Positions 1 to 30,549 of a DNA stretch of 60,000 nucleotides are shown here, one piece after another. The notes under the pieces were generated by a model. The model made no database searches. It was not told the origin of the DNA and saw only the letters and a program-made list of their open reading frames with translations. The stretch spans positions 89,547 to 149,546 of the forward strand of contig JBBHKE010001814.1 of assembly GCA_037447655.1 (NCBI GenBank), read 5' to 3'. The position numbers and the translations under genes were made by a program. Position 1 is the stretch's first letter. Each line of letters begins with the position of its first letter. The DNA comes from Zygnema cylindricum. Taxonomy: Eukaryota > Streptophyta > Zygnematophyceae > Zygnematales > Zygnemataceae.

Positions 1-640
1 TCTTCCTCTTTGGGAGTAGTGCCTGGCCGGAAGGTTTGCGAGGAGAGGAAAAGAACTAGTGCTCCGTCTCGCCATGGATTTGGGGCAGAACGCGAGTGGG
101 GCAGCGAAGCTAAAGAACGTGTGATATAAAAACCTGCTGATATAGCAGCTAAGTCGTCATTGAAATCCTACCGGACTCCATTGTCTGTGGTCCCTGACAA
201 AGGATTTCGGGAAATGCCGTCTGCATTCAGACTAAGTATTCATGGGCGGTGAATTATTTCCACATCATATTCTTGTAAAAATAATGCCCATCGCGCTAAT
301 TTTCTTGACAGTTTATCGTTCGTCATCAGCTAATGTAAGGGTTGATGGTCGGTTAGAAGTGTAAACGGTTTTCCGTAAAGGTAGTGATGAAAGTGTATAA
401 TACCCCAAACTGTCGACAAACATTCTCCTTCATAACTACTGTAATTTGACTCCGCACGATTATTACTTTTGCTTGCGTAAGCGACCACGTATTCTTCTCC
501 AGTTAGTTCACGCTGAGTTAAGATGGCCGCAATGCCAGGCTTTCCAAAGTCTGTTTGTAGGCAGAAAGGTAATTTGTGATTAGGAGGTCGGAGGATGGGA
601 GCACTAGAGAGGGCATCTTTCAACTTCTGAAAAGCCAAAA
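1..640 (-). CDS. Gypsy 1 RNase H domain and connector (partial)
   Basis: RNase H of the gypsy pol polyprotein, which degrades the RNA strand during reverse transcription. The minus-strand frame from 638 to 330 shows the family pattern: PFCLQTDFGKPGIAAIL with the first catalytic Asp, SNYSSYEGECLSTVWG with the catalytic Glu, and FTLLTDHQPLH with the third Asp. A stop follows directly, and the downstream connector (330 to 1) continues with interruptions and resembles the equivalent part of gypsy 2 near 30,120-30,300. The domain keeps its three acidic residues, unlike gypsy 2, where the first is Lys. The element continues beyond the left edge of the window. Confidence 0.8.
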
Positions 641-1730
641 TTTGATCAGGTCACCATACAAAAGGGACCTTTTTTTTTAGTAGATCGTTCAATGGTGAAG
701 CGACAGTCCTAAAACTAGGGATAAATCTGCGATAATAATTAGCTAATCCTAGGAAGGCTCGAAGACTCGTGAGATCTACAAGGGTTGGCAGTTTTCTGAT
801 AGCCTCAGTTTTTGCTTCAAGTGGTGTGATCCCCTCGGAGGAAATGAAATGTCCAAGGTAAGGCACACCCTCAGACCCGAAAGTACATTTAGCTGGATGA
901 CATTTTAATATAACCTTTTTCAGTTCAGTTATGACCCATTCGATATGAGCACCGTGATCTTCAATTGTGGCAGAGGCGATAATCAAATCATCAATTTAAC
1001 ATCGTGCAAACTTGCAACCACATAAAATTGAATCCATTACTTTTTGGAAAACTGCGGGGGCGTTCTTAATCCAAAAGGCATGACAGACCACTCCCAACGA
1101 CCAAAACTACCCCAAAAGGTGGTTTTCTGCTTATCTTTCTCCTCTATTTCAATATGCCTTGTCGTAAATCGAGAATACTGAAATATTTAGCGCCTCCTAC
1201 ATGATCAAATATTTCTTTGGCCAATGGCATTGGATGTCGATCTTGTATTGTTCTAACATTGAATTCACGGTAATTGCCGCACATATGGCGATCGATAAAG
1301 TTTCCTTCGACATCTTTTTTTTCCTGGGCATGACACTGGGTGCTGCAAAAGTAGAATCCGCCCGATAAATGAGGCTAGCTTCCTCCAATTCAGCGCAACG
1401 TTAGTCCACTAATTCCCATTCTGTTTGAGATAAGCAGTGTTTCGACTTGAAAATGGGACGATCATTTTCCAGATCTATAAACATTTTATTGGTGGTATGG
1501 TGACCAAGATCATTCATAGAGAAAGCAAAAGCGTTGATATTCCGGAGAATCACTTCGTTCAGTAGATCATGTTCAGATTGAGAGAGATTAGAGCCAAATT
1601 TCCATTTAGGAGTTTCCGAACCTTTAATCGTCATTGCTTCCATGGCTTGTGCAAAAGCTAGCTGTTCATCCGCGATAAGTGACTGACCTAATGAGTAAAC
1701 AACCAGTGTTTTTGTTAGCATTTTGTCCAA
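641..1730 (-). CDS. Gypsy 1 reverse transcriptase, broken
   Basis: Reverse transcriptase palm, fingers and thumb of the gypsy polyprotein. From about 1,730 the N-terminal part contains PIFKSKHCLSQTEWELVD. The palm follows in fragments (1,388-1,197 and 1,100-990). The thumb lies at 986-651, with CHPAKCTFGSEGVPYLGHFI and LRAFLGLANYYRRFIPSF, both highly characteristic of Ty3/gypsy. The catalytic box reads stop-I-D-D near 992-1,003: the Tyr codon of YIDD is TAA. Other stops break the frame at about 651, 1,197 and 1,401. The upstream neighbour on this strand is the methyltransferase, and the downstream one is RNase H. The domain is clearly identified and clearly non-functional. Confidence 0.85.
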
Positions 1731-1989: not shown

Positions 1990-3000
1990 TGGTTGAGACA
2001 GATGGGTTTGTGCGTAACGACCTGCTGCAAATCCGAGGCCTAAGAGAAATGAGAGAGATTGAGGGTCTATGACACGACCTAAAAGGATGCAACGCTGTTT
2101 TTCTGTGAGACCATGTGCAACCGTACTGCTGGGAAGGAAATGCATAAGGTGTTCCCGTTCTGTGGCTGTAGGTTCATCTAGGCCGCCTGTGTGAATATTT
2201 CTGAGCAGGCCGGGCCCATCACCAGAGAAAGCGTGAGAGTGTGGATAAGACACTAGAGTGGGGAGAACTTTGAGCGGTTGGCCTGAGACGTTACTGTTGT
2301 AATTTGGTGGGTGATCAGGCCGCAAACAGGTTTGGACTTTGTGAAAAGAGAAGAAGTGCACTCTGAATATCTGTAAAAGGAGGTCTGACACAAAGATTTC
2401 CTTCTCTAAAGCGTCCAATATCAATCAAGTTGGTCCATTTAGATCAGACCCCATGAGCTAAGGACTCGTGGCGAGCGACATCAATGATAAGAGGAGGACA
2501 AATTAATGCTTCTATCCGTTTGTAATCAGCTAACACTGTAGGTCGATGATCGTTATAGGCTGCCACGTTTTCCAGAATATATCCCAATGGGCGATCGAAA
2601 GATTTCAAAAAATGCATGATACGAAGTGATTCAAATAATAATTTGGTGCGCGGATCAGCTAAGCCGAGATCTTTGCCTGCTCGTGACATTCCCTGACACT
2701 TCCAAACGGCAAAAAAAAGATCGATTGGTTCCACATCGAAGGGTGTTTGTTTCTTATCAAACGAATTTCTTGAGGTAATGTTGTATGCATGTGAGCAAAA
2801 GCAGATTTAGGGAAAAGATGTGGATATTGTCCGTGTAAAATATTACAGTGATGTGTTTGGGCTTTCCGAGCTAAAGGGTTAATGTCAACTGAGTAGTAGT
2901 GCTTGATAAGTAATCCGTTGCGAAGGCATGAGAGTAGAGAGGTACCTATGCCTGCGAATAAGTCTAAAATGACTAGACCATCTTGATGAGGTTTGACCTG
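1990..3000 (-). CDS. C5-cytosine DNA methyltransferase domain inside gypsy 1 pol, broken
   Basis: The domain would transfer a methyl group from S-adenosylmethionine to cytosine C5. Visible motifs in order are: I, DLFAGIGTSLLSCLRNG (2,964-2,938 and onward; SAM binding); II, YYSVDINPLA; IV, WKCQGMSRAGKDLGLADPR (catalytic Cys at 2,698-2,696); VI, ILENV (2,578-2,564); a target-recognition-like stretch, GQPLKVLPTLVSYPHSHAF; IX-like, TEREHLMHF; and X-like, LLGRVIDPQSL (2,085-2,053). The usual Pro of motif IV is Lys. A one-base frameshift sits near 2,740, between motifs II and IV, and further stops lie after motif VI. The protease lies just upstream and RT just downstream, so the domain is part of pol. 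Motif order and the FAGIG, CQG and ENV signatures make the family call firm. Assignment to the DNMT3-like branch is a guess. Confidence 0.88.
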
Positions 3001-3860
3001 TATTGGTTTCCAATTAATGGGAAGAAAACCGGAAGGATATATAGAAATAAGAGGTAGAGGTGGAACCCGTGATAAAGGAATTTGAAGTGTGTGTTTGTAG
3101 ATTTGATCAAACTCGAGAGAATCAATATTAAAACCTGGATTATTGAAAAGTTCAAGCAAATAAGGACTGTCGGGCATAATTTCCTCTGCGGAAAGAGAAT
3201 GAAAATTTTCAAATCCCACCGAATTTCCGGAATAAGCAAGGACAGATTGGGCTGCGTGAGCCATAATGGGCATGGATTGGCGTGCTGAAATTAGAGGGAG
3301 ACAAATTTGTTTTTCCCGATAATTGGTAGGACGGTAGGAAAGAGTATGATCGTACATATCAACGCCGCCTCCAACTCTGAAAATCACATCTTGCCCCACT
3401 AAACACTCGTAATCACTACATTTGGTGACCAATGCGTGAGCACGAACTTCCGCAAAATCAGATTCTGTACCATTTTGAAACCTAAAACAGAGTGGATCCT
3501 TCGTAATGCCCAAAACTGGTTCGGTTGTTCCCGCTGAGGTGAGTAAACGTGTGGAAGTTGACTAAAGTTTATCAGCTGTCAGACCTAGTTTCAGTGCAAA
3601 AGATGACCCCAAAATAATAAGTTTTGCTCCAGTGTCCATAAGTGGTAATGACGGTATGACACCATTGACTGAAAATGCACCCTTCCCATTATCTAGAAAA
3701 CCGATGTGTGGGTCAAATGAACTACGCTCGTCGGTAGAGATAGGCCTAAGAGCGTCAAGATTACGGTTCATTTGTAAAGCCTGTAATGTTGCAAATGGGA
3801 TGGATATCACCCTAGAATTTAGGTTGGGTGAATCGGAAATCATAGTAGACAAAATGCATA
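3000..3860 (-). CDS. Gypsy 1 retropepsin-like protease and linker to methyltransferase
   Basis: Aspartic protease that would process the gag-pol polyprotein. The minus-strand frame 3,852-3,562 contains PLMDTGAKLIILGSSFALKL, with the catalytic Asp-Thr-Gly at 3,636-3,628. A stop after ADKL breaks the frame. Protease-like sequence continues at 3,513 with ECLVGQDVIFRVGGGVDMYD, then a linker of about 130 residues with no recognised domain leads into methyltransferase motif I. Gypsy 2 has the same arrangement (DTGAKPIIFG at about 20,222-20,251). The linker residues are conserved between the copies (for example SAEEI and SGFLPI), so it belongs to the polyprotein. It could be an N-terminal extension of the methyltransferase. 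Confidence 0.75.
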
Positions 3861-4610
3861 ATCTTTCCTTAACCCTATGGTTGTCCTGAATAGAGCGGTC
3901 AAGAATAGTGAGTGCTTCCGTCGTGATGGTGGAAGTTGTTTCGGTAAATCGGTTGCGGTTTCTTTGGAAAATGATAATGGTAGACGTGTGCTAGAGTGTT
4001 TACCCTCGCGATTGTAATCAACTGTCCTCTTGTCAAACGTGGTTGCCCACTTTTGAAGGGTTGAATCTCGTAAAACTCTACCTGCTAGCATGGGAAGGTG
4101 GACAACTGTACGAGCCATACCAGTTAGGCGAGTCGGCAATTTCATTTGAGCCATAAGGGCTGCAAACTAGTCTTTGATCATAGCGACCATTTGAGTTTGC
4201 ATTTCCTCTCTCTCTTTTTCTCTCCAAGACACTTTAGGTGGGGAGTTTTTTTTTGACTCTTTAAGTGGTTGGACTACTTTGGTAGATCTAGTTGGTATGC
4301 CACCATTTCAAATCTGATTTTGATATGAAAATTCAGGGTTTTTGATGTGATAATGATACACAAAGTGGCCAGTCTGTTGTCAGTGTGTACAAGTCGCAGA
4401 TTTATCCGGGCACATCCGAGCATCATGCCCGGTCTTGCCACATCGGAAACAAATCCGATTCGATGGTTGATTTGGTGGGGTTCCCATAGCTGGGACCCTT
4501 GGTGGCCGATTATTTGGCCCCAAGTTAAGAAGATTTGGTGAATTGAAAGGGTTAGGTTCTTTTTGAGGGGCTTTTGGTCGATCGTGGGCCTCCCACCAAC
4601 AATTTGTCAT
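3861..4610 (-). CDS. Gypsy 1 nucleocapsid with CCHC zinc knuckle and gag tail
   Basis: Nucleic-acid-binding end of gag. The frame 4,610-4,380 carries RICFRCGKTGHDARMCPDKS, a complete CX2CX4HX4C zinc knuckle at 4,451-4,410. It is followed by a second, weaker cysteine pair (TCTHC). Downstream (4,380-3,861) the frame is broken by stops. Readable parts include a charged stretch and MAQMKLPTRL at 4,154, probably the spacer before protease. Zinc knuckles of this type bind element RNA during packaging. The matching region of gypsy 2 (19,411-19,470) has a stop inside the knuckle. Confidence 0.75.
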
Positions 4611-5551
4611 CTCGTATTATACAACGTATTGAGCTGCCTGGTCAACGTAAATTTGAGACCGTATGTTTGGGTAAGGTGGCTTTGAATAAATTTCTTTGAC
4701 TGGAAACGAAACTGTCCAACAAACTTTTGGACAGCTTCCCCATCTGATATCAAATCGGGTAACGCTTCCCGTAAGGTCTCCATGCGAGCTCGTAAAGCAA
4801 GGGCAGTTTCCCCTGGTTTACGCTCAAAATTCATTAATTCCTTAACTTGGTCAGGATTTTGCATGCGATACTCCTCTTGTAACAAATTAAACATTATGGT
4901 GAGAGGGTCTCGTAACGAAATTATCATCCCGGGTCGTGCCGGGACGGCGGCTCGGGCTGCAATGGCATATTGGTGGGGACCTCCGCCACAGCCGGGTAAA
5001 GAACATTGTCATGCCCATCTAAGACCTCGAAAATAGCAGCTTGATACGGAATTTATGCTTGATCTATTACCTCAGGCGTACCAGCAAAGAGTGAAGAATA
5101 TTTAGTTATCGCAAGTATGCCATCATACTTGCGGGAATATAAGGTAAGGGCTGACCCGCGAAGGTAACGCCCAAGAAGGGAGAAAGCGACATGCATGTCA
5201 AATCTATCTTGATAACAGAAAGCTAGATCTCGCATTTCAGTGTCGAATAACATTCAAAAATGAGATAAACTCGTAGTATCATTCATTCCAGAAAAGCATA
5301 ATTGAAGTTTACCAGGAGTGCCTTCCGATGTGGAGGCCATCAAAAAAGACGAGTTAGTCGAAATTCAAAGCCTCAATCGATGCTAACGGAAACCTAAAAG
5401 AAAGAAAATCTGAATCGGGTTTCCTTTCGTAATCCACCTCTTCCACAGATAGCGTGGAAAGAATGGATGACAAAGATGAGACAGTGGTTAAATCTGAACG
5501 AATAGAAGACGCTCTAGATTCGATTAAAGGACTTAACGTCAAAGGAACCAA
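4607..5551 (-). CDS. Gypsy 1 gag core, broken
   Basis: Structural gag protein in three pieces. Frame 5,551-5,354 is a Ser-rich N-terminal part. Frame 5,253-5,053 has a capsid-like stretch containing LLGRYLRGSALTLYSRKY. Frame 4,927-4,607 contains MQNPDQVKELMNFERKPGET, RARMETLREALPDL and FIQSHLTQTYGL. The last part matches gypsy 2 at about 18,990-19,240 closely (DQVKELMNF, RARMETLREAL, FIQSHLTEAYGL). Together with the downstream zinc knuckle this identifies gag. Stops separate the pieces, so no complete product is encoded. The N-terminal assignment is less certain than the C-terminal one. Confidence 0.65.
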
Positions 5552-6300: not shown

Positions 6301-7439
6301 TAGCCTATGAGGGCACGCATATCAGCACTATGCCACGATCTGCCCGACTATAAAGCAATGGTAATTTTATGTGATAATTCGTGCAACCTAATATATATAT
6401 ATATCTTAGGGGTGTTTTTTTTTTTTTTTTTTTTTATTTGATTAAGTTAGCTAGGTGTTCTGAGTGAGTTAATCCGGTAGGAAGAAAGAAGAGAAAACGA
6501 TACCGGACAGTTTAACAATCTCAGATCAACAACTCAGAAACAAATTAGACAACAAATGAATGGAAATAAAGCATAGCATAAATCTAAACATATAGATAAA
6601 TTGACAAAAACTAGACAGAAAAACCAATTGACACAAGGAATATAGAAACTTTGAAAAACTGACAATTTCAATTTGCAAAAAATGGAGCAAAACTGCAAAT
6701 GTCAAATTGCAGTAAAGAGAAGAAAAGTAGACAATTTCAAGAGCACAGGAATATTAAGTCAACGAATAGCCAGTAGGCTCCTTCGTCATTTTATATTCCT
6801 TACAGGAGTTCAATGAATAAATATTTAACTCAATATCACAACACACAAACTTAAACTGTTGCAAATAGCGAGCAAATTTGAGATAACCAGATTTAGTCAA
6901 ACACAAAACATACGAGGAAAGCCAACCCTAATCCACTATCACGCTGTAAACCACACAAGCAAACCCAAAACTTTCGAATCACAATCCAAGGTTCAACAAC
7001 AGCCTCATAAAGAAGACCGAGCAGCAATCCACTTGATAGGACACGAGAAAAAGTGAAGGGAAACCGGTTAGGCTTCGACGTGAGCCGCATAGATTAATTT
7101 GTAGGGCATGTTTACAGAGAAAGAAAGTACGAGCTAAGCAGCAGAACGCTTAATGACCAGAAAAATAGTCACTAAACTATCCTGGCAATTTCACAAGAAA
7201 AATCCTCAAAGTTTAGGTCAAATCTTCTAAAATGAGAATTCCTGTGCTCTTGAAATTGTGTGCACAGAATTCACCTAAAATTCGCTAAGTACAAAGTCTA
7301 CTGCTAAAAGTCTAACTGACTACGAATACATGCGTTCTATGTAGCTGTTTGCTACTAGTTTGGATTTTGGCCAAAAGGCAACCAGAATCGTATGCCTTAC
7401 GTTACACAATCTACAACCTGCGGATAAAAACCCTTCCTA
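6301..7439. other. AT-rich unassigned stretch with T21 run and an inverted repeat
   Basis: No coding signal is supported. A T run of 21 lies at 6,415-6,435 after a short TA repeat. A perfect 22-base inverted repeat joins 6,731-6,752 (starting ACAATTTCAAGAGCAC) to 7,238-7,259, enclosing about 485 bases. No target duplication is visible at its ends, so a MITE is only a possibility. Confidence 0.4.
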
Positions 7440-7920
7440 CGCTACATGTGAATGCGTGCGACCTCCAAGGGTCCACGACTTAAAATGGACCATTCACCGT
7501 TGACTAGTGCAGTTTGCATCCGGATCGTCCATTTGTCTTCATCCTTCGTGGCCATAGATTTGCGTTCAAATCCACGCTGGCGTCGACATTATTTGGAGTT
7601 GATATTTCGGTTCGCGACCGTCCGTACATCGATTCAAAATTGGTCGCGGAAATTCCGGCCGACAAAGTATGTCGGTTCGCCAAAATTCTCGGACAGGAAA
7701 CCACATTAGTTCGTGTAAATTCTTGTGGCTGATGACTTCGCGGACAGAATATGAAACGTCCGCGAGTTTCACGGCGTCGAAAATAAAATTTGTACGGTCC
7801 TGTCGCCACCGAAATATCCCCATGAGTAAATTGGTGTGGCGTCTTTTATATTACAGACCATTGCCATGTAAATAAATATAATTTGGTGCCCCATCGTGAT
7901 CCGGCATGACAGGTGGGAAC
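7440..7920 (+). mobile_element. Possible LTR end and primer site of an unidentified gypsy element
   Basis: The stretch is CpG-richer than its neighbours and ends with an AATAAA-like signal (GTAAATAAATAT near 7,868). Then comes ATTTGGTGCCCCATCGTGA near 7,882, which resembles the start of plant gypsy internal regions. No coding domain follows, because a copia B fragment starts at about 7,905. This is a weak call resting only on the end-of-LTR appearance. Confidence 0.25.
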
Positions 7921-9403: not shown

Positions 9404-9442
9404 CTAGGGTTGGTGTAATGATTACAACTTTGAGAGGGGGAT
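9404..9442 (+). mobile_element. Remnant of copia A internal 3' end with polypurine tract
   Basis: The 39 bases match the copia A sequence just before its second LTR (14,889-14,927), including the coding tail, the motif GTAATGATTACAACTTTG and the polypurine tract GAGAGGGGGAT. An LTR follows at once. This shows that another copia A unit once lay to the left and shared the LTR at 9,443. Confidence 0.75.
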
Positions 9443-15961: not shown

Positions 15962-18711
15962 AGTGGTATCGGAGCTTGTTTGCTCCTTAAGGTGTAGAAG
16001 GGTGGCTAGTTTGGCCTCTATGGGGAGAAAGAAGAAGAATACCCCTTCTCCTATAATGCCTTCTTCTTCTAGGATGATTCCTCGACCTCCGGATCCGGAT
16101 CCTCCGGATCCGGATTCTCCGGATCCAACCGAATTCGAATCATCGTTGGATCTGGAAGTAGAAACTCCATTTGTCTTCATCGGCAAAAATTTTGAGGAGG
16201 TTGTTCTGATCGATCCGATCGGATAAAAGAAAGAGAATGAGGGGAAAAAAGAGGATGAAGATGACGCGATGGAAGATCGTCTTCAAAAACTGATGGATGG
16301 TCTTTTCCGATATGTTGATCAACGGATCTCGGAGACGAATCGTGTCACGAGACCTCCATTTTTTGGAGATCCCATACCGACTGAAAGCGTCGTTGATACG
16401 GAAGGAGATGAGGAGGAGATGATGGAATTGATTCGAAAGGGGAAACTTCCCATCGATGACGTTTTCGATCTTGACGATTGGAGTGAAGGGGACGAGCAAG
16501 TTGAATCTATGTCCGGAAAAATTGTCATTTTCAATGGGACGAATTATCAATCGTGGAAGAAATATATCAAAGGCCAATTTAAATTAAAACGTCTTTGGAA
16601 GGTGGTAAAAGGGGTGAACAAGATGCCTACCTCGGATCAGAGAGCTTATCGGGTGTGGACGAAGAAAAATCTTTTCCACCGTCGGCGGTTTATTCCAATC
16701 ATGTGGCACTTCTATTCACGATTTATTTCTTACCCGAAGATTCGCCCATGATTGTTGGGTGGCCCTTGAAAATCATTTTGAGAAAAGTCTTAAAAACAAA
16801 GGGCAACATCTTTATACCGATTAAACATCTTTCAAAGAGAAACCAAATGACTCGATCGATGAGGCCGCAAAGAGATTTAATATTATTATTGAGCAACTCG
16901 CAAATATGAGGAAATTTATTGAAGAGAATGATAAGGCATCGGTCTTCACCCATGCCTTACCGGAGAAAATGTTACACTTACGGGACATTCTCTTATCAAG
17001 GGATTCGAACACCTAGGATTCGATCATTACATTTCTTGAATCGACCAAGGCGAATCGCCCGAGCTCATCGAGGGGGACGGAACCAACTAGTTCCCTCAAT
17101 GCGGCAACACCGGAAACGCCCGATCTAAATTATTTTTTGGGAAAAGGAGGAAAAAGAGGGGGATATTCGAGAGGAAGAGGGGGAAGAGGAAACGAAAGGG
17201 CCGTGAGATCTCTTTCCCAACCTCGGATATTCAAATTTGACCAATATTGCATGTTTTCAATGCGGCAAACTTGGTCATATGGCGGCTTCTTGCCCGGATA
17301 AGGAGCGCCAATGTCACTTTTGCGAGAAATGGAGTCATATAAGCTCTCTATGTTACTCGAAGGCCGACAATGGAGGCGGCGGTGGAAGAGGAGATCGCGG
17401 CGGTAGAAGAGACGGCGACGGCCGATACGGTGGGCGCGGTGGCGGTCGTTATGGCGGCCGCGGTGTCCGCGGAGGTCGCCTTGGAAGACGAGGAGGACAA
17501 TTTATGGGCGATGACTAATTTGAAAGAGGAGTTGAAGGCGCGCAAATATTTTCCGCCCTTAACTTTTCGCTTGATATTTTGGCAGGTGCTACGCAACAAG
17601 AAAAAGAGTGGATTATAGATTATGGCGCGTCACACCACGTATGTACGGACGCGTCGTTTTTTGATGATTTTCGCTAACTCACAGTCATAAGTGGACAAGT
17701 GATTACAATAAGTACAATGGGTATTGTACGTTTTGGACTTACCTATTTTGGACCCAAGTGGCGTGGAAAAAGTGACGCTAACCCAACTAACAAATGTTTT
17801 GTACTTACTTGAAGGTTCAGTGAACCTTCTCAGCGTACCGCAGATTCAACGTGTAGGCGTTAGCGTATTTGCGTATGGCGACTCCACATTAAAAATTGTA
17901 CGATTGGATGGTGTACAAATAGGCGAAGGAGAAGTCACGGATTTTATGCATAGTCGCTTAATATGGCGTCGGCCGAAAGCGCACCCAAATTCTGGTGGCA
18001 TTATTTTGCAAATTTCCGAATTGAAAGGCGATTTAACTTTGTGGCATCACTGTATGTGTCACATATCCGAGGGGAGTTTACGACGCATGATAAAGAATGG
18101 AAGTGTAAGGGGATTCGACTTGGCGTCAAGAGAGAAAATTAACGGGTGCGAGATATGGAGTAAGGGGAGACAAATACGAAAGCCGCATCCGGCCAAGGAT
18201 CCAACGCATTGATCTAAGCATCCGCTTGATCTTGCGCATATTGATTTATGTGGGGACGTAAAACTGGAGACGATTGGAGGAAACAAATATATTATGGTGG
18301 TGGTGGACGACTTCTCTCGCTTCACATGGGTAATATTACATAAACACAAATCCGAAGCATTTTTACGCTTTCAAGAGTGGCATGTGATGGCCGAAAGGCA
18401 ATGTGATAGACAATTAAAATCTATTAGATCAGACAATGGAGGGGAATTTCTTGCTTTTGATCCTTATTGCAAAGAGTGGGGAATTTCTCACCAATATATC
18501 GCATCTTACTCACCGGAATCCAATGGAATGGCCGAAAGAAAGAACCGTACGCTTCAAGAAATGGTACGATCCATGGTACACGGATTCGGGAGGAGTATTC
18601 ATTTATGGGGCGATGGAATTTTAACAGCGAATTATATTTGCAATCGGCGAATTACATCGGTTTTGGGTGATATAACCTCGTATGAGTGGTGGTATGGGCG
18701 AAACTCTATAT
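15962..18711 (+). mobile_element. Copia A unit 2, internal region truncated in integrase
   Basis: A near-identical copy of 9,976-12,700, offset by 5,986 bases, starting with its own primer site at 15,964-15,975. It holds the same gag pieces (16,020-16,226, 16,269-16,751), the two zinc knuckles with RGG tail (17,237-17,518), protease remnant (17,609-17,644), pre-integrase region (17,724-18,212) and integrase core (18,294-18,660), including the same inherited stops. Single-base differences include GACGCAAG to GACCCAAG near 17,752. Mismatches rise sharply from about 18,670. The match ends near 18,711, where gypsy 2 begins. RT, RNase H and the third LTR are missing. Confidence 0.85.
18294..18711 (+). 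CDS. Copia A unit 2 integrase fragment
   Basis: Repeats the DDE core of unit 1: VVVDDFSRFTWVILHKHKSE, SIRSDNGGEF and NGMAERKNRTLQEMV, with the second catalytic Asp and the Glu kept. After ITSVLGD the sequence diverges (TSYEWWYGRN in place of TPYELWYVRK) and coding similarity stops at the junction with the gypsy element. It is a fragment with no function. Confidence 0.8.
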
Positions 18712-19500
18712 CTTTACATTGTGAAATATGCTGCGATTTGTGCCATGACTGAAATGGCACCAGCCTATTCCGGCTCACTAGTCATAATTGGCAGCCCGCA
18801 AATTCCTTTCCAACCTGTTGTTCTCGCAATTTATGAATCTACCAGTATTGAAATCTCACTAGAGATACCTAAGGTCCCTCATCAATTCGTAGTAGCAGTT
18901 CGAGTAGTAATTCCTGTTCAAGCAGCTATGTTTGTCCCCTTACGCGATTCGGTATCATTTGTTTTACCTTGTTACATGAGAAGTACAAAATGCAAAACCA
19001 TGATCAAGTCAAAGAACTGATGAATTTCAAACGCAGATTGGGAGAAACTACAACGACAATGCGAGCACGTATGGAAACCTTACGTGAAGCCCTGCTTGAC
19101 CTAATGTTTGACATATAGGCAGTTCATAAATTTGTGGGACATTTTCCCACCCAATCTCAACGTTTCATTCAAAGCCATTTGACTGAGGCGTATGGCCTCG
19201 AAACTACTTTCGAGCAAGTTGCAAAATATGCTATAAAGAATGAAATGTAGACCTACTGGTGGGACGCTCATGAGCGACCTAAGCCTTCTCTTAGGGATCA
19301 TTCGAATCCAAATCCAAATCTGAATCCTTTCCCTAACGCACGCGTATGGACAAACCCTAGATCTCATACGGCTCCAGCCAAAGGGACGTTGCCGACGACT
19401 CCCAAAGTGTGTATATGCTTCTGATGCTGTAACACCGGTCACGACTCACGCAATTGTCCGGATAAGACGGCCACGTGTACTCATTGTTATAAAACAATCA
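18712..19500 (+). CDS. Gypsy 2 gag and zinc knuckle, broken
   Basis: The C-terminal gag region is recognised by close similarity to gypsy 1. QVKELMNF, RARMETLREAL and FIQSHLTEAYGLE lie at about 18,994-19,210. A stop at about 19,116 splits it. A Pro-Asn-rich spacer follows (19,290-19,400). The zinc knuckle then reads CF, stop, CCNTGHDSRNCPDK at 19,411-19,465, so a stop sits inside the first half. The 5' part (18,712-18,990) has an open frame, but its relation to gypsy 1 gag is weak. The N-terminus of gag is missing at the junction with copia A. Confidence 0.65.
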
Positions 19501-20160
19501 TTATATTCACTGATGTCACATTAAAAATCCTGATTTTAGTTATCAAAATCAAATCAAAAATGGCGGCAATCGTGTCTGCTCAGCAAAATTGGTCACTCCA
19601 CCTAAGGAGGTAAAAAAAGACACACATCTTTGAATCAGTACGAAGGACCGCGAGAAATCCGCGATGCAAGCTACTGTGGCAGCCATGATGAAGGAGCAAT
19701 TTTCGTAGTTTTTGGCGCAGGTCAAACCGCAATTATCCGGAATGGCTTGAACTGAGGTTAATATGTCCTCATTTACTGGTCGATCCCTTTGAGAGTCCAC
19801 TCTTTAGCAGCGGGCACCTCATTTTTAAAGGACTCTCGATCAGAATTGCGAATTATAATCCATTAACACCCATATTCCACTATCATTTGCTAAAGAACCT
19901 CTTTCACCTATTTTAGAAACAACTTCTATTATCACAACAGAGGCACTAACAATCCCAAAAATGAGTATCAAAGACACCTATATGGTCAATGAACGATTAT
20001 CAATACTGTCCACCATGCTTTGTGATCTGGTGCATAACACCAAATCCATGGATCTAACTCAATTTGCTCATGCAATACAGACCCTTTAGAATCATTGAAA
20101 CGCACTCTCTCTTCAAGCAATTACCCTTAAAGAATGTGTTGGTCTTACACCGCACATAAG
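19501..20160 (+). other. Gypsy 2 gag-protease connector, heavily decayed
   Basis: No continuous frame is present. The position corresponds to gypsy 1 4,380-3,700, and short matches occur (for example MMKEQF near 19,687 and a leucine-rich stretch near 20,010-20,100). It is kept as element DNA only because it lies between recognised gag and protease. Confidence 0.5.
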
Positions 20161-20182
20161 TTTTATAGTTAACAAACTAGGA

Positions 20183-20380
20183 GTGTTAATAGTCAATGGT
20201 TTTGCCCCAGCGTTACCTCTCATGGACACAGGCGCGAAACCAATTATTTTTGGGTCAGATTTTGCAATCAAAATAGGTCTTACAGCAGAAAAACTACAAC
20301 CTACAACCACACGTTTATTGACTTCAGCAGGCACCACAAAACTTGTTCTCAGAATTACAAAAGAACCCATGTGTTTTTAG
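20183..20380 (+). CDS. Gypsy 2 aspartic protease
   Basis: Retropepsin-type domain. The frame contains LPLMDTGAKPIIFGSDFAIK with the active-site Asp-Thr-Gly at 20,225-20,233, then TRLLTSAGTTKLVLRITKEP. It parallels gypsy 1 (PLMDTGAKLIILGSSF and TRLLTSAGTT). A stop at 20,378 ends the frame. Sequence matching the downstream half (AFVTKCNDYECLVG, with a stop near 20,467) continues to 20,530. It would process the polyprotein, but it cannot be made whole here. Confidence 0.78.
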   Translation: MLIVNGFAPALPLMDTGAKPIIFGSDFAIKIGLTAEKLQPTTTRLLTSAGTTKLVLRITKEPMCF

Positions 20381-20859
20381 TTTCAGTGCAAGTTGGAAAT
20401 AGATTTTGCAGAAATATATGCTTACGCATTTGTCACCAAGTGTAATGATTATGAATGCTTAGTTGGCTAAGACGTTATTTTTCGCGTAGGGGGGGGGTTG
20501 ATATCCATGATCAAACATTTTCGTACAAACCTACGAACTTTCGGTAACGCAAAATTTGCTTACCTCTTATTTCGGCCATGCAACCCATACCTACTACAGC
20601 CCATTCAGCACTGATTGTGGAATCCTATACCGCAGTTGGCATAGGTGCAAACATCCTTGAATCTCTAACAGCGGAGGAAATCTCACTAGATCCCTCGAGG
20701 TTACCAAAATTATTTACTACACCCGGATTTTATCATTGACCCTTCAGATATTGACCGACTTTACAAACTTACTATACCGATTCCTTTATTTAGTATTCCG
20801 AATCTACCTCCTTTGACGGTGGATCTTTCCGGATTTTTGCCCATTAAATAGAAACCAGT

Positions 20860-21960
20860 CAATTTAGAACCTCACCCGATTGGTCTCGTTAACTTTGACC
20901 TTTTTGTAGGAATCGATACTTCACTTCTCTCTTGCCTACAGAACGGGCTTCTTATTAAACATTATTATTCGGTAGATATTGATCCTTTGGCTAGACACGC
21001 TCATCTACACACACAGTCAACTCTTGCATGAACAATATCCACACCTTTTACCCCACTCTGCCTTTTACGACATGCATTTGGCTCTACCACTGGATATCCG
21101 CCTAATAAGAAATCACCATTTGTTGGAATTAGAACAAATCGATCTCTTTTTTGCTAAATGGGAATGTCAAGGTATATCTAGGGCTAGGAAAGGTTTAGGT
21201 ATCGTAGATCCACGTACTAATTTGTTTTTTGAGGTGGTGTATCTTATCCACTTCTAAGGTTTAGGTCTCGCAGATCCACGTTCTAAGTTGTTTTTTGAGG
21301 TGGTGTGTCTTATCCCCTTCTTCCAAAAACTGAACAATCCTTTTAGATACATCTTAGAAAACGTCGCTCCTTCAAATGACTCGCGGCCCACAATTCTCGC
21401 AAATTACAAACGCATTGAATCATTAATTAAACCACCACTGATCATTGATGCCGCGTGCCACGGTTCGTTGGCCCACCGAGTTTGTTCCAAATAAACTAAC
21501 CTGGTGGACATGGGTTGGCTCCGAGAAGCTAACCTCGTCATGTGACCACCAAACCTTTCCATTCAAGATGCACTTCTTCTATTCCATAAGGTCCACACAT
21601 GTATACAGACAGACTATCCTCTTAGATTTGGTCTTAACATCCTGGGCCAGCCACTACGCGCACTACTTATACTAGTCGCACACCCACACTTTCACGCATA
21701 TTCACATAACGGACTGGGAATGCTTCACAATACTCATACAAACAGCTTAGAAGAACCTACCGCTACAGAACAAGAGTACCTTTTACATTTCATTTCGTGC
21801 ACTTCTGCCGCTCCGGGACTCACCGAGTTGCACCGCAGCACCTTACCTGGTTGAGTCATAGATTTTCAATCATTGTCAGTTGATTTGGGCATAGGGTTTG
21901 CAGTCGGTTGATACGCACAGAAAAATCCGTATAAATCAGCTCGGGTGGGCATACACCATT
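20860..21960 (+). CDS. C5-cytosine DNA methyltransferase domain inside gypsy 2 pol, broken
   Basis: Same domain as in gypsy 1. Motif I region near 20,898 reads DLFVGIDTSLLSCLQNG, with the second Gly of FxGxG replaced by Asp. Next come YYSVDIDPLA, a frameshift near 20,997, and then motif IV WECQGISRARKGLG with the catalytic Cys at 21,165-21,167. An imperfect 66-bp tandem duplication (21,190-21,255 and 21,256-21,321) repeats the LGxxDPRxxLFFEVV stretch. Motif VI ILENV follows at 21,351-21,365. The target-recognition-like GQPLRALLILVAHPHFHAY and the motif IX/X region (TATEQEYLLHF; VIDFQSL, with a stop in place of a residue) lie at about 21,640-21,880. Protease lies upstream; RT lies downstream after the copia insertion. 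Confidence 0.85.
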
Positions 21961-22373: not shown

Positions 22374-23439
22374 TATAGAAATTAATGGTCTTTTTAAAGT
22401 ATTTTCTAGGTCTGAATAGAAATAAGAAAGAAGTCGAGGCAGTCTACCTCTAACTTCTCTCTCCAACTCTCAAACTTGTTGCAGTCACTTAGAAATTGGA
22501 GAGGAAACTAGAGCTATGGCTACCTAGGCTATCTAGAGGTTTACGGGATATAAATATTACTTTATTTAAAATTAAGGATATAATTACTAAATTATATGTA
22601 CAATATCCAAGATTTGAACATGGAACATGCCGGCCGGTAATCTGCCGGTATTCGGTAGCTCTAACCCTTAACTCTAGAGATAGTGTTATGTAATATAGGG
22701 TTTGATAATTATTTAAACATTTATACATAGGATAGTTCATTTAACTAAAGTAGTTTTACAGGAGACGTAGATCCAGTATTGTTAAAGTACGGATCACGGT
22801 TCGAATAAGAAATGAATACTGCGCATTTATTTTTTTATCGAAACGAATACCGCGCATGTATTTATTACGGCTATGATTAAATGTGAATTTAATCGGACAG
22901 CCGTAATTAAACGCCGAGATCGCGGAAGAGAATTTCGGCGGTTTTTGATCATAGCCACATTAGATGACACGTGGCGGAATGGCATTGGATTGCGGCATCT
23001 CCGAGGATTAAGGGAGCGAATCCGGATATACCACGTGTCGACATTTAGGCCATGTCGTACAATGTTCGTACAGAAAGTACACCGACAGCTGTACTTTTGT
23101 GTACGGAGGAGTAATCTGATTGGCTCCGTACATCAGTAGATAGAGTCTGTGAGAGAGATAGGACTTAGAAAAATTAGGAGATAGGACCCTCTCTCCCAGA
23201 GAGCTTCTGTACAAAAGGTCAACTTTGACCCTCCATAACTTACTACTCAGGGGAGCAAATTCAAAGATTCTTTTTGCTATAGACTCAAGGGAGTCTTGCC
23301 TTTACAGGGGTGAAGGTGGTTAGAGTTATTGTTCGCCAAAGTGGTAGTTGTTTTTGCTGTAACACAGAGGGATCACGGTTATCCTAGAGGCTTTTTGGAA
23401 GTTGTCCACTCTGAGGACTTATGGAGGTCTTGGAGTTCA
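22374..23439 (+). repeat. Copia B 5' LTR
   Basis: The 1,066-bp LTR is followed by GGTTATGGGCCC as probable primer site. It contains an antisense tRNA-like segment (22,604-22,680) and two CACGTG G-boxes (22,968-22,973 and 23,032-23,037). The sequence CTGATTGGCTCCGTACATCAG near 23,115 is shared with the other LTRs. Confidence 0.88.
22604..22680 (-). repeat. tRNA-derived segment within copia B 5' LTR
   Basis: Minus-strand reading gives GGTTAGAGCTACC, like the end of a tRNA D-arm, and a degraded B-box, TGTTCAAATCTTGG. The 3' LTR counterpart is better preserved. Confidence 0.5.
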
Positions 23440-24365
23440 GGTTATGGGCCCACACTCTAGGGTAACAATCTTTAATAGAACTGGCTTCATATACTGGGAA
23501 AGTATGATGATAGGAGCTTTATACGAAAAAATGTTATCGGGGATAGTGAATGGAGGGTTGGGACGTCTATCAAGTCTTGGAATCCTCAGGGTTTGGAGGA
23601 AGCAGATTCACCAGGAAAGTGGATCCACCTTAAACGGAGGAAATAAAGGAAGGAGAAGTGGTGGACAAAGGAAAGGAGAAGGAGGCGACCACACCAATAG
23701 CAACTGGTTCGGCATTCATAGCACCTATTCCGAGGAACGAGGAGAATGATATTGAAACCTGGGACTTCAACAATATGGCGGCAAAGCACTTCATCATATG
23801 CCATCTCACTCAAGGATTTGCATGTCCTCATTTGCAGGTAGAAAGGGCATCCGATCTTTGGATGGCTCTCATAGAGATGTACCAAAGTAGTACGATTTAG
23901 CAACAACAATTGGCTGATCAAAAAGATAATGAGTATGTATATAAAGGAGGGAAGATGTTCAATTTTTGCAATGAGCTTGCTACACTCTTCATGGAGCTAG
24001 AGAGTGCGGGAAAAGATTTTAGTCAAAAAGAAAAAGTTAACTGTTTACTGATGAAGTTAACCGATGAGTTCGAGAACATAGTCAACCGTGTGCAGGACTT
24101 TCCGGACTCAAGGTGGATATGGAACTCAGTGGTAGGGATGATTCTTGTTCGGGAGAATACGAATGAGATCGGAGGGGGAGGAAAGAGTGGCCAAGCCTTC
24201 GCAACTGCGATCGATTGGAGGAACAAGATTCCCGGAAACAGGTCGGAAACTATGGGGGGAGGGAGCAGAAAAATCAGACCGACGAGTTCGGACAAAAGGC
24301 TCCCAAAGGTTTATATCATTTTTGTAAGAAACCTAGGCACTATATGGCAGAGTGCACTAAGCTAA
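23440..24365 (+). CDS. Copia B gag, broken
   Basis: Gag protein. The first part (23,469-23,560) has RTGFIYWESMM, comparable to the W-motif at the head of copia gag. Then come DIETWDFNNMAAKHFIICHL and ASDLWMALIEMYQSS (23,745-23,897), ended by a TAG at 23,898. The frame continues at once with QQQLADQKDNEYVYKGGKMF and LLMKLTDEFENIVNRVQ. Near 24,310-24,350 a zinc-knuckle remnant reads FCKKPRHYMAEC, with the second Cys replaced by Lys. Several frames are needed to read through. Confidence 0.7.
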
Positions 24366-24800
24366 CCGAGTTTTGGTTAAAAGAGGGGCAGACCGGTAGT
24401 ACCCTGAGGGGAAAGAAAAAGGCCCTTGTGACACAGGTACATGAGGGGGAATCTGAGGACGAGGATGATGAGCTCCTTTTAGATGAGGAGTTGGAGGCAA
24501 AAAACAAGGTCGAAATTCCACGAAAGCAGAAATATGCTTACGGTGGATTGAATGGTGAAGCAGGATGGATTGTAGATTCATATGCCTCCATGCACATGTG
24601 AAACGATAGGCACCTCTTCACTAAGATAAGAAAGATTCCCACCGTAGAGATATAGTACGGGGATGGGAGGATAGTCACCACTACTCTTGTAGGATCGGTA
24701 GATTTGAAAGTGTTAGTAGAAAGAAAGACATCCATAGTAACATTCTCCGATGTATTGTTTATTTGGAGCTGAACAAAAACCTCATCTCTACATCTGTATT
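24366..24800 (+). CDS. Copia B protease region, broken
   Basis: After an acidic linker the frame reads GWIVDSYASMHM at about 24,562-24,597, the copia protease motif (normally DSGAS) with Gly changed to Tyr, followed by a TGA. Downstream to 24,800 fragments of the protease fold are seen in other frames. The loss of the DSG glycine alone should abolish activity. Confidence 0.65.
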
Positions 24801-24802
24801 AG

Positions 24803-26200
24803 ATGATAAGGGTTTTTTTTACTTGCACTAGGGAAGGAGTCTTTACTGCTAGTTTTGAGAAGGATGTATATTTCATTGCTGAGAAAGGTAGCCATGGGAT
24901 GTTTAGGCTGGTTTTAAGTAATGAAAAAAAGAAACTTTATTATGCCGGTGTTCATGATATTATGATGTGGCATAAGAGGCTTGGGCATGTGAATCTAGAC
25001 AAGTTAAGAGAGATGAAAAAGATGGGAGTGGTGGAAGGGATTAAGTTTAGTGAGTGTGATAACATAAGTGATTGTAGTTGCCCTTTCCTAAAACACCCAC
25101 CTATAAGGGAGAAAAAATTCTAGATCTAGTACACACAGATATTTGGGGACTGGCTAAAGTGCCCTCACTAGAGGGAAGAGATTTATGATGAATATCACTG
25201 ATGATTGGTCTCGGTATTCTCGGGTGTATCTTTTGAAATACAAGTTAGAAGCTCAGGATTACTTTAGAGAATATAAAGCTTGGAGTGAAAAACACCTTGA
25301 AACTCCAACCAAGAGAGTAAGGAGTGACAATGGTGGGGAGTATACTTCTAACCTGTTTGAAGATTTTTTGAGGGAAGATGGACTCCAACACCTAAAGAAA
25401 GTTCCAGAAAACCCGGAACAGAATGGGGTAGCTGAAAGATTAAATAGAACACTAAGTGATAGTGCTAGAAGTATGTTGTCAGATAAAAAGATAGGAAAAA
25501 GGTTTTGGGCAGAAGCAATGAACAGTGCTAATTTCCTCAAAAAAAGAGTTCTTAGATCAGCTACAAAAGATGAAACACCTTATGAGAGAGGTTTCCTCAA
25601 AAAAAGAGTTCTTAGATCAGCTACAAAAGATGAAACACCTTATGAGAGAGGGACAGGCCGGAAACCAGACATATCTCACTTAAAGGTTTTTGGTAGTCAA
25701 GTATTCAGTCTAAATACAGATCGGTCCAATTGGAAGCTAGATCCTAAAGGAAAATCGGGATACTTATTAAGATATGATGAGGATGTTAAAGAATATAGAG
25801 TTTACGATCTAAAAAGGGAAGATACAATCTTAGTAAAGCATCTAGAAGTTATGGATGAAGGAAAGTCTGTGGATCCCTTCAAGTATATAAAGTCAGTAAA
25901 AATCAGATTTGAGTTAGAAAATTCTGATGACTTTGAGCTTCCTAACTATCTAGGCTTTAGAGAAGATGACATTCTTGTAGGTACAAATCAGACCGAAAAG
26001 GACTCGGATGTGGAAACTCCAGTGACAACTCTACCTGAAGCGGAAGACATGGTGGAAATTGATGCGGAATCAAGGGATAGGGGAGAAGCCAAGTTTGTTC
26101 GAAAGAATCCACGAGAACCACCTATTCCGACCTCAGATTTTGAGGGGGGAAGGAGAAGTAGCAAAAGACTACAAGAAAAATTGATTAATAACAAGGTAAC
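24803..26200 (+). CDS. Copia B integrase with exact 60-bp internal tandem duplication
   Basis: The pre-integrase zinc region MMWHKRLGHVNLDKLREMKK (HHCC type) is at about 24,962-25,023. The core follows: DIWGLAKVPSLEG with the first Asp near 25,137, MNITDDWSRYSRVYLLKYKL, RVRSDNGGEYTSNLFEDFLR with the second Asp, and NPEQNGVAERLNRTLSDSAR with the Glu. At 25,532-25,651 a 60-base unit is repeated exactly, doubling FLKKRVLRSATKDETPYERG in frame. A long C-terminal region (to RSSKRLQEKL) continues to about 26,200. One open frame spans 25,185-26,412, which is unusual preservation for this element. Confidence 0.85.
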
Positions 26201-27105
26201 TAAACTATCTCATCAAGATGAACCTCAAACTTATGGAGAGGCGATGACTTGTCCAGAAAGAAACCGGTGGAAGACAACCATCAATGAGGAGATGGCCTCA
26301 AGTATGGCAGCTAATACTTGGGAGCTGGTGGATTGTCCACCTAACCGAAAACCAATCGGTTGTAAGTGGGTTTTCAAATTAAAACTGAACCCAGATAACA
26401 CAATCGAGCGCTAGAAGGCCCGATTAGTGGCAAAGGGATTTACACAAAAAGAGGGAATTGACTACGAGGAAACCTTTGCAATGAGGTCAAAATTCCGTCG
26501 TCCGCATACTTCTCAGCCTCGCAGCAGCGGAAGACATGGAAGTACACCAGATAGACATCAAGAGAACCTTTTTGCATGGAGAATTGGAAGAGGAGATCTT
26601 CATGCGACAACCCAAAGGGTTTGTGGAGGAAGGAGAGGAGAGTAAGGTATGCCAGTTGATTAAATCTCTTTATGGTTTGAAACATGCGCCTCGACAATGG
26701 AATAAGAAGCTTGATGAGTTTCTTACCGGTCTGGGATATATTCGGATCGGCTCAGATCACTCAGTCTATGTTTTCGAAGATGAGGAATGTTTTATATTTA
26801 TTGCAATTTAGGTTGATGATTTGCTTGTTTTAAATAAATCAATGGAAAAAATTAATAAACTGAAAACCGATCTTAAGGGGAGATTTGAAATGAAGGATAT
26901 GGGGGAAGCAATTTTTCTTTTGAAAATTCAAGTAGAGAGAGACCGAAAAAAAAAAATTATAAGATTGACTCAAAAGGAAGCAATAGGGAAAATGCTTGAA
27001 AATTTTCAAATGGATAAAGCTAATAGATGTACAACTCCAATGGAGTTGAAAAAAGGAAGTAAGGGGAGTGAGGAAAAAGGAGTAATAGTCTTAGACGAGG
27101 AATAA
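26201..27105 (+). CDS. Copia B reverse transcriptase with stop at the catalytic YVDD
   Basis: RT begins with NTWELVDCPPNRKPIGCKWV and then a TAG at 26,412-26,414. It continues with KARLVAKGFTQKEGIDYEET, a frame change near 26,500, and VHQIDIKRTFLHGELEEEIF, where the usual DVKTAFLHG appears as DIKRTFLHG. SLYGLKHAPRQWNKKLDEFL follows. The catalytic box is stop-VDD at 26,809-26,820: the Tyr codon is TAG. The thumb (LKGRFEMKDMGEAIFLLKIQ) continues to 27,105. The enzyme cannot be made. Confidence 0.87.
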
Positions 27106-27802: not shown

Positions 27803-27815
27803 AAAATAAGGGGAG

Positions 27816-30300: not shown

Positions 30301-30549
30301 GAACATATGATTTATATCTTTGCCGCTCCCACGAATCACAAAACCGAACACGATCCATGGCGGGACACCGCTTTCATCCTCTTCTTGTCAACTAAGTCTT
30401 TCGAGCGAGCACCTTAACGGGGGAAGAGGAGCGTGTGCGGAGAAGAGCCCAAAGTTGCTTCTGGATGAGGGGCTCACTCATTCGCCTTCTCACAGAAGGA
30501 AGTCATCGGCATGTTACTCGGCCGATAAAACCACTATCATTTATTAACC

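What the first reader, a model, noticed from the sequence alone, without database searches (positions are those of the whole stretch)
1990..3000. A gypsy retrotransposon carries a C5-cytosine DNA methyltransferase between protease and RT
The sequence shows methyltransferase motifs I, II, IV, VI and IX/X-like in order, flanked by a retropepsin DTGA and a gypsy RT on the same strand. The same PR-MT-RT order recurs in a second, diverged copy at 20,183-29,760 on the other strand. That argues the domain belongs to the element and is not a chance neighbour. As I recall, cytosine methyltransferases inside LTR retrotransposons have been reported in dinoflagellates and in charophyte algae. If this is a land plant, it would extend the host range. 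A self-methylating element could mark its own cDNA or influence host silencing; that is inference.
Basis: partly seen in the sequence, partly recalled or inferred. Interest (0 to 1): 0.95.

Follow-up and report, generated by a model that had tools for sequence, protein, structure and literature searches.

The report
Retrotransposon carrying a DNA methyltransferase
A large family of jumping genes in a plant-lineage genome carries its own DNA-methylating enzyme and a histone-reading finger, and it looks as if it primes its own copying and integrates through a circle cut at an internal palindrome.

Summary
Confirmed and extended. Window 3018-2014 (-) encodes a frameshifted C5-cytosine methyltransferase (PF00145, 3.5e-8) between a retropepsin and a Ty3/Gypsy RT. 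A second broken copy (18697-31182, +) has the same order, with a Copia element between MT and RT. The same 353-Mb genome holds uninterrupted copies: Gag-PR-MT-RT-RNaseH-IN-PHD finger, up to 2395 codons in one frame. All 8 of 8 loci fetched by RT alone carry the MT. It is DNMT3-type and under purifying selection. Closest known: KnitGypsy-Dnmt3 of Klebsormidium nitens (2018), also DNMT3 in Gypsy Pol with A-coding-B-A-B repeats. Not found in print by my searches: (1) a PHD finger ending the integrase; (2) a 14-24-nt primer site after A1, perfectly complementary to a stretch inside A1 in 9 of 9 copies (Tf1-like self-priming); (3) element ends TGTC...GACA with 4-bp target duplications in 3 of 4 complete copies, lying inside the reverse-transcription LTR at a palindrome, GACAGCTGTC. 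I infer a DDE integrase that cuts an internal palindrome of a two-LTR circle. Four other bounded copies show no duplication. The methyltransferase's role is untested; cDNA methylation is my best guess. The host is probably a streptophyte; alga or land plant is unresolved.

The parts
6753..7911 (-). Copy 1: A1 repeat (5' LTR-like block); begins TGTCATGC at 7911
   Evidence: start motif and self-primer end; homology to A1 of C1915, 69.6% over 7049-7492. Its 3' limit was placed by the primer match itself
7238..7259 (-). Copy 1: 22-nt partner of the primer site inside A1, putative RNA start
   Evidence: perfect complement to 6731-6752; pairs in MFE and centroid fold, z -4.88
6731..6752 (-). Copy 1: primer-binding site (self-primer type)
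4479..5340 (-). Copy 1: Gag
   Evidence: tblastn with L009 pieces
4299..4475 (-). Copy 1: CCHC zinc-knuckle region
3394..3723 (-). Copy 1: retropepsin (DTGA)
   Evidence: (below Pfam cut-off)
3019..3393 (-). Copy 1: linker between PR and MT
2014..3018 (-). Copy 1: DNMT3-type C5-cytosine methyltransferase, two frame changes
   Evidence: family level
570..1463 (-). Copy 1: Gypsy reverse transcriptase
3..569 (-). Copy 1: RNase H (continues left of the window; integrase homology stops after about 35 residues)
18697..19567 (+). Copy 2: Gag and CCHC
20144..20467 (+). Copy 2: retropepsin
20471..20842 (+). Copy 2: linker
20843..21914 (+). Copy 2: methyltransferase, broken
22376..28869 (+). Copia element between MT and RT of copy 2 (not part of the system; limits are those of the repeats found)
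   Evidence: direct repeats; domains
28965..29863 (+). Copy 2: reverse transcriptase
29864..30515 (+). Copy 2: RNase H
30519..31182 (+). Copy 2: integrase, partial

Best explanation
The window holds two old, broken members of a multicopy Ty3/Gypsy retrotransposon lineage whose polyprotein is Gag-PR-DNMT3-RT-RNaseH-IN-PHD. SHOWN by sequence: the MT is a fixed, selected part of the element; the element has split repeats A1-coding-B1-GC-A2-B2; a primer site right after A1 pairs perfectly with a stretch inside A1; a G-rich purine tract sits right before B1; the element ends (TGTC...GACA) carry 4-bp target duplications in young complete copies. INFERRED life cycle: RNA starts at the A1 partner stretch; its 5' end folds back and primes minus-strand synthesis (Tf1-like); reverse transcription from this site and the purine tract gives a linear DNA with LTRs of the form B-GC-A; its ends are joined into a two-LTR circle (the A2|B2 joint); the DDE integrase cuts the internal palindrome GACA-GC-TGTC of one LTR, so that the inserted form is permuted to A-coding-B-GC-A-B with a 4-bp duplication. 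The PHD finger on the integrase probably reads histone H3 tails and steers insertion. The MT most likely methylates the newly made cDNA or circle before integration, to pass as or be protected as host DNA. My odds: element with its own MT 0.97; self-priming 0.92; circle cut at the palindrome 0.65; cDNA methylation as the MT's main job 0.45.
For: MT is part of the element: 8 of 8 RT-selected loci; PR upstream in 15 of 16 distinct MT loci (ten of the loci were picked by me for long frames), the exception being a host gene. Uninterrupted frames up to 2395 codons with Gag-PR-MT-RT-IN and PHD. Selection: MT dN/dS 0.13-0.39 in 6 pairs of subfamily B, 0.16 in two pairs and 0.31 in one pair of subfamily A; 7 further A pairs have saturated dS at dN 0.12-0.17. 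Catalytic Cys-Gln, ENV/ENI and RVR invariant in 8 sequences. DNMT3A 70 bits against HhaI 35, DRM2 28, DNMT1 14. Self-priming: best complement lies within -2 to +9 nt of the A1 end in 9 of 9 copies, 14-24 nt, next best elsewhere 10-15 nt; 0 of 300 shuffles for each of 5 copies; 7 different primer sequences among the 9 copies. Ends: 4-bp duplications TTGG, AAGG, CCCT in C1344, C829, C1915, with A1/A2 at 0/931, 4/1383 and 6/1473 mismatches. Palindromic junction: 148 exact 16-mer matches against 0 for the reversed control; in 19 of 35 RT rows compared it lies 2.2-3.1 kb downstream (the 35 of 147 rows favour contigs that are in the junction list). Subfamily B has the same palindrome with different flanks. 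The A2|B2 joint differs by 1-2 nt between copies.
Against: Complete A-coding-B-A-B structure with both ends was read in only 4 copies, all subfamily A. The fourth (C449) has an imperfect 3-of-4 duplication and 141/1104 A1/A2 mismatches. Three A-coding-B copies (C783, C2577, C544) and the rearranged subfamily-B copy C1374 show no target duplication, which my model does not explain. In L051 and L052 the junction is present but no purine tract was found upstream, and in L053 no B2 was found within reach. CpG is not depleted in the two A copies measured. PHD of subfamily B is below Pfam's cut-off (21.1 vs 24 bits). IN dN/dS is 0.55-0.61 in 3 close pairs. The predicted reciprocal form A-B-GC-A-coding-B was not looked for. 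No activity, transcript or methylation data.
Confidence: 0.65

Rival explanations
1. The element is KnitGypsy-Dnmt3-like and the MT acts after integration, on chromatin: it lets a new copy be methylated at once so that the host tolerates it (self-silencing), rather than protecting cDNA.
For: PMC5890265 discusses slower transposition as a possible benefit. The PHD finger on the same polyprotein would place the enzyme at chromatin.
Against: The MT sits between PR and RT, so it is made and packaged with the cDNA machinery (inference). Some copies look recently inserted (0-6 mismatches between repeats), and CpG is not depleted in subfamily A.
Confidence: 0.25
2. The split repeats are moved by a tyrosine recombinase as in DIRS/PAT elements, with the Gypsy-like integrase only a relic.
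For: A-coding-B-A-B is the arrangement typical of DIRS elements (PMC5890265 legend).
Against: A DDE integrase (rve, with H2C2 zinc finger) is present and no phage-integrase domain was reported in the pieces scanned. Perfect 4-bp target duplications at 3 of 4 complete copies; tyrosine-recombinase elements make none (recalled).
Confidence: 0.04
3. The permuted structure arises without a circle: linear cDNA concatemers or recombination between nested copies yield A-coding-B-A-B, and the palindrome is only a trace.
For: Some copies are A-coding-B without target duplication, or rearranged.
Against: A precise palindromic junction recurs 148 times and three young copies have matching ends and duplications.
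Confidence: 0.2
4. The methyltransferase modifies RNA (Dnmt2-like), for example the element's own genomic RNA or primer hairpin.
For: The self-primer makes a long RNA helix, and RNA methylation was suggested for the LINE-type carriers (PMC5890265).
Against: Sequence is DNMT3-type; DNMT2 scores 31 bits against 70 for DNMT3A.
Confidence: 0.08
5. Chance insertion of a host methyltransferase gene into two copies.
For: None after the genome search.
Against: 8 of 8 RT-selected loci carry it; at least two subfamilies at 42% MT and 53% RT identity share it.
Confidence: 0.01

Closest known systems
KnitGypsy-Dnmt3 of Klebsormidium nitens (de Mendoza et al. 2018, PMC5890265; parts 1-4 of 7 of the text read, figures and supplements not seen)
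   Same: Gypsy domain composition, DNMT3-related domain in the Pol frame, DIRS-like repeat arrangement, purifying selection on the DNMT.
   Different: Main text says nothing of a PHD finger, target duplications or a palindrome. Motif IV here is ECQ or PCQ. No K. nitens sequence was at hand, so shared descent was not tested.
SymbioDIRS-Dnmt3 and SymbioLINE-Dnmt of dinoflagellates (PMC5890265)
   Same: Retroelements with their own cytosine methyltransferase; DIRS-type repeats in the first.
   Different: Tyrosine recombinase or LINE elements, not Gypsy with a DDE integrase.
Tf1/Sushi and Tcn1 chromoviruses (PMC6317226, PMC2864245; passages seen)
   Same: Primer site complementary to the LTR itself (self-priming); Gypsy polyprotein.
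   Different: Those carry a chromodomain; here a PHD finger sits at the same place. No MT, ordinary LTRs.
DIRS/PAT-like elements (recalled, plus PMC5890265)
   Same: Split direct repeats A-coding-B-A-B.
   Different: Here a DDE integrase, TGTC...GACA ends and 4-bp target duplications.

Membership tests
Ty3/Gypsy LTR retrotransposons | Order PR-RT-RNaseH-IN with Gypsy-type domains | tested here: met
Ty3/Gypsy LTR retrotransposons | Two identical LTRs bounding the integrated element | tested here: not met
   A1 on the left, B1-GC-A2-B2 on the right
Ty3/Gypsy LTR retrotransposons | Short target duplication and TG...CA ends | tested here: met
   4 bp in 3 of 4 complete copies; absent in C783, C2577, C544, C1374
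Chromoviruses | Chromodomain after the integrase | tested here: not met
   Pfam shows a PHD finger there and lists no chromodomain in L017 or L012
KnitGypsy-Dnmt3-like elements | DNMT3-type domain inside Gypsy Pol | tested here: met
KnitGypsy-Dnmt3-like elements | A-coding-B-A-B repeats | tested here: met
   four complete copies
KnitGypsy-Dnmt3-like elements | RT and DNMT phylogeny with the K. nitens elements | not testable with these tools
   no eukaryote protein search answered
DNMT3 methyltransferases | Best match to DNMT3, unrearranged motif order I to X | tested here: met
DNMT3 methyltransferases | PCN motif IV of animal DNMT3 (recalled) | tested here: not met
   ECQ (A) or PCQ (B); the human chain reads PCN
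DRM (plant rearranged DNMT3) | Motif block order rearranged | tested here: not met
   linear order; DRM2 28 bits against 70
Self-priming (Tf1/Sushi-like) elements | Primer site complementary to the LTR's own transcript | tested here: met
   9 of 9 copies; in two of them the A1 limit was set by the match
Self-priming (Tf1/Sushi-like) elements | Primer cleaved from the RNA 5' end in vivo | not testable with these tools
   needs RNA
DIRS / tyrosine-recombinase elements | Tyrosine recombinase, no target duplication | tested here: not met
   rve/H2C2 integrase and duplications

The most novel reading that the evidence does not exclude
A DDE-integrase retrotransposon that has turned an internal LTR palindrome into an attP-like site: it self-primes, circularises its two-LTR cDNA, is methylated by its own DNMT3 while a free circle, and is cut at GACA-GC-TGTC by an integrase that a PHD finger guides to chromatin. 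Integration from a closed two-LTR circle, given up long ago for retroviruses (recalled), would then be the normal route here.
Probability: 0.45. Interest if true: 0.88.

Novelty: new variant of a known kind. Interest (0 to 1): 0.74.

Why it matters
Host genomes methylate transposons to silence them, so an element that carries and keeps its own de novo methyltransferase is paradoxical. This family shows that the 2018 Klebsormidium case is not alone: a second genome with many copies, at least two diverged subfamilies and some recent insertions. The permuted repeats, self-primer and internal palindrome turn 'DIRS-like repeats in a Gypsy' from a curiosity into a stepwise, testable integration model, and the PHD finger gives a natural handle on how insertion and methylation are tied to chromatin.

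Tried and rejected
Rejected: chance insertion of the MT; bacterial or viral origin as the nearest source (genome contigs 0 of 94 pattern stretches confirmed; viral contigs 1 of 44, only 56 residues; few peptide patterns, so weak); DRM, DNMT1 or DNMT2 type; tRNA priming was not tested against tRNA genes (none found in the window or in 12 loci), but the self-complement at the same place makes it unlikely. Led nowhere: Rfam and tRNA scans of the window; host naming by rbcL (PF00016 did not complete); subfamily-B palindrome count (not completed). CpG depletion gave a mixed result. No structure prediction was asked for, because the stated list of allowed inputs does not name loci from whole-genome searches.

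Literature: absence statements rest on searches (PHD finger with Gypsy, integrase, LTR terms: 1 and 5 listings, one opened by passage, an unrelated neighbouring gene; split direct repeats with Gypsy and integrase: 5 listings, none opened; two-LTR circle terms: 6 listings, none opened; KnitGypsy: 1 paper; DNMT3 / streptophyte terms: 157 papers hold at least three of five terms, 25 listed, two opened by passage; self-priming terms: 12 listings, two opened by passage). Preprints and subscription papers are not held.

Full report
WHAT IS IN THE WINDOW. Copy 1 lies on the minus strand from its A1 repeat (7911-6753) through Gag 5340-4479, CCHC 4475-4299, PR 3723-3394, a linker, MT 3018-2014, RT 1463-570 and RNase H 569-3; it continues left of the window (L033), where integrase homology stops after about 35 residues. 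Copy 2 lies on the plus strand: Gag 18697-19388, CCHC 19389-19567, PR 20144-20467, MT 20843-21914, then a Copia element (direct repeats 22376-23430 and 27818-28869; Copia domains at 25158-26414), then RT 28965-29863, RNase H 29864-30515 and part of IN 30519-31182. Both copies are broken. The MT piece at 2444-2806 hits PF00145 at 3.5e-8.

THE FAMILY IN ITS GENOME. The window is part of a 352.8-Mb, 2689-contig genome. PF00145 gave 123 scored matches of 782 candidates, with open frames up to 2395 aa. I took ten loci with long frames (L009-L018) besides the eight best-scoring ones (L001-L008). The longest frame carries, in order, two CCHC knuckles, DTGA, motif I, motif IV, RT and IN; Pfam on pieces and on split frames of other copies gives zf-CCHC, PF00145, RVT_1, RNase H, H2C2, rve and a C-terminal PHD finger. 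PF13650 protease hits are below cut-off, while the DTGA motif and position are clear. PR lies upstream of the MT in 7 of the 8 best-scoring loci, and in 15 of 16 distinct loci in all (L005 and L006 overlap L018 and L013). The exception, L007, is a host gene exon: it matches PDB entries 4fsx, 7ubu and 9mvy at 102 bits against 51 for the best other DNMT1 chains (that these are plant chromomethylases is recalled). Fetching by RT instead, 8 of 8 best loci (L042-L049; two coincide with L009 and L010) have the MT directly upstream; 147 RT matches were scored of 3661 candidates. Among the 50 best RT rows, 21 have a listed PF00145 hit 1.4-3.3 kb upstream; both lists are capped, so this is a lower bound.

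TWO SUBFAMILIES AND SELECTION. Subfamily A (window copies, L009, L010, L011, L014-L018) and B (L012, L013 and others) share 42% of MT and 53% of RT residues; L003 is about 57-61% like B and may be a third. NG86 dN/dS of the MT is 0.13-0.39 in the 6 independent pairs of B, and 0.16, 0.16 and 0.31 in the 3 measurable pairs of A; 7 A pairs have saturated dS with dN 0.12-0.17. RT: 0.07 (one B pair) and 0-0.31 (4 measurable A pairs). IN: 0.55-0.61 in 3 close A pairs, where dS is only 0.01-0.03. So the MT is kept at least as firmly as its neighbours.

THE ENZYME. Over eight MT sequences (frames without interior stops; L006 not used because it is L013) the catalytic Cys-Gln, ENV/ENI, the RVR of motif VIII and much of motifs I and X are conserved. 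A profile search of PDB ranks DNMT3A first (70 bits, 1.5e-18), DNMT3B 59, HhaI 35, DNMT2 31, DRM2 28 and DNMT1 14 (63 matches, 60 shown). Motif order is linear, unlike DRM. Motif IV is ECQ (A) or PCQ (B), not the PCN of the human chain. No prokaryotic relative was confirmed (0 of 94 pattern stretches); one viral contig matched over 56 residues at 43%.

THE PHD FINGER. A full C4-H-C3 finger follows an SH3-like integrase tail in 7 of 7 copies printed. PF00628: 2.9e-10, above cut-off, in A (L017), and 3.3e-4, below cut-off, in B (L012). PDB relatives of the A finger are histone-reading fingers such as PHF12, DPF3/ubi-d4 and KDM5. Chromoviruses carry a chromodomain at this place (PMC6317226, passages); my literature searches found no PHD there, and PMC5890265's main text has no 'PHD'.

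REPEATS AND ENDS. In C1344, C829, C1915 and C449 the order is A1-coding-B1-GC-A2-B2, the arrangement that PMC5890265 reports for KnitGypsy-Dnmt3 (legend). A1/A2 mismatches are 0/931, 4/1383, 6/1473 and 141/1104, so the first three look recent. The ends are TGTCATGC...GCACGACA. Target duplications: TTGG, AAGG and CCCT in the three young copies; TCAT/GCAT in C449. Against this, C783, C2577 and C544 end after B1 (A-coding-B) with no duplication, and the subfamily-B copy C1374 is rearranged (three B copies, about 3.7 kb between two of them) with none. B1 and A2 meet at GACA-GC-TGTC, a perfect palindrome; subfamily B has the same ten bases with other flanks. The 16-mer ACGACAGCTGTCATGC occurs 148 times in the genome (86 + 62) against 0 for its reversed control. 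Of 35 RT rows compared (of 147, favouring contigs in the junction list, of which 100 of 148 places were shown), 19 have the junction 2.2-3.1 kb downstream, 6 at 7.4-12.8 kb and 10 none within 15 kb. Of four further junction loci, L050 shows B1-GC-A2-B2 with a short A2, L053 shows B1 without B2 in reach, and L051 and L052 show no purine tract upstream.

SELF-PRIMING. No tRNA-type site (TGG...) follows A1. Instead the first bases after A1 are the perfect complement of a stretch inside A1. In 9 of 9 copies the longest such complement in the A1-plus-leader region lies within -2 to +9 nt of the A1 end (14-24 nt; next best elsewhere 10-15 nt). The A1 end was fixed by the A1/A2 repeat in five copies, by homology in two (C2577, C783), and by the match itself in two (C544, window copy 1), which are therefore less independent. 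Shuffles: 0 of 300 in each of five copies. The nine copies have seven different primer sequences, so pairing is kept while sequence changes. C1374 has a TATA box and C1344 a TATA-like GATAAAT about 32 nt before the partner (hand count); the others show none that I would call. In window copy 1 the 22-nt helix closes the leader in both MFE and centroid folds (z -4.88, 0 of 100 shuffles), as a perfect complement would lead one to expect. Self-priming is known for Tf1/Sushi, and is predicted for plant Tcn1 and TAR elements (PMC6317226, passages).

MODEL. A purine tract ending in 8 or more G precedes B1 in the four complete copies, and in C1374 and C544. Together with the primer site after A1 it defines the reverse-transcribed LTR as B-GC-A. 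The inserted form A-coding-B-GC-A-B is a circular permutation: A2|B2 joins what were the two ends of the linear cDNA, and the insertion ends lie inside the LTR. The simplest route is a two-LTR circle cut by the integrase at one internal palindrome. The A2|B2 joint varies by 1-2 nt between copies while the palindrome does not, as end-joining would give. A-coding-B copies would follow from one-LTR circles or later B1 x B2 recombination, but either should leave a duplication, which I did not find; this is unexplained.

ROLE OF THE MT. Placed between PR and RT in the polyprotein and kept by selection, it most likely acts on cDNA or circles before integration (inference; the same idea is in PMC5890265). 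CpG o/e is 0.90 in the window, 0.89-0.92 in two A copies, 0.62-0.65 in two B copies and 0.99 in flanks: compatible with past CpG methylation in B, no support in A.

HOST. Exons of a plant-type subtilase lie at about 33.0-37.2 kb (-) (PF00082 above cut-off, PA domain just below; PDB cucumisin-like proteases), and a chromomethylase-like exon lies in L007. This points to a streptophyte (family ranges partly recalled). Size and contig number resemble Zygnema cf. cylindricum SAG 698-1a (359.8 Mb, 3587 scaffolds; PMC9915684, passages), but this is circumstantial and I do not name the host.

VERDICT. Observation confirmed; belonging to the element confirmed; host range in land plants not shown; mechanism inferred. 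A new variant of a known kind, with an unusually testable life cycle.

Noticed in passing
window 9405-15819: Two Copia-like stretches repeat at a spacing of about 5.99 kb with 99% identity over 300 nt, with integrase and RVT_2 domains.
   Followed up: partly
window about 33045-37166 (-): Exons of a plant-type subtilase gene with PA domain, split by introns.
   Followed up: partly
L007:1498-1761: Chromomethylase-like exon of the host, a clue to its lineage.
   Followed up: partly
L003: MT and PR only 57-61% like subfamily B: a possible third subfamily.
   Followed up: no
C783, C2577, C544: A-coding-B copies that end exactly at GACA (or GACAGC in C2577) but lack target duplications.
   Followed up: partly
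C308:88714, C366:44581, C624:695159: Three RT hits with the same score and stop pattern, and junctions 2944-2946 bases downstream: duplicated segment, haplotigs or copies of one broken element.
   Followed up: no
C1374:31633-35348: About 3.7 kb of other sequence between two B repeats of a subfamily-B copy.
   Followed up: no
L012, L013 coding regions: Subfamily B is GC-richer (0.52) and CpG-poorer (o/e 0.62-0.65) than the window (0.40, 0.90).
   Followed up: no
L041: One viral contig encodes a 56-residue stretch 43% like the MT.
   Followed up: no
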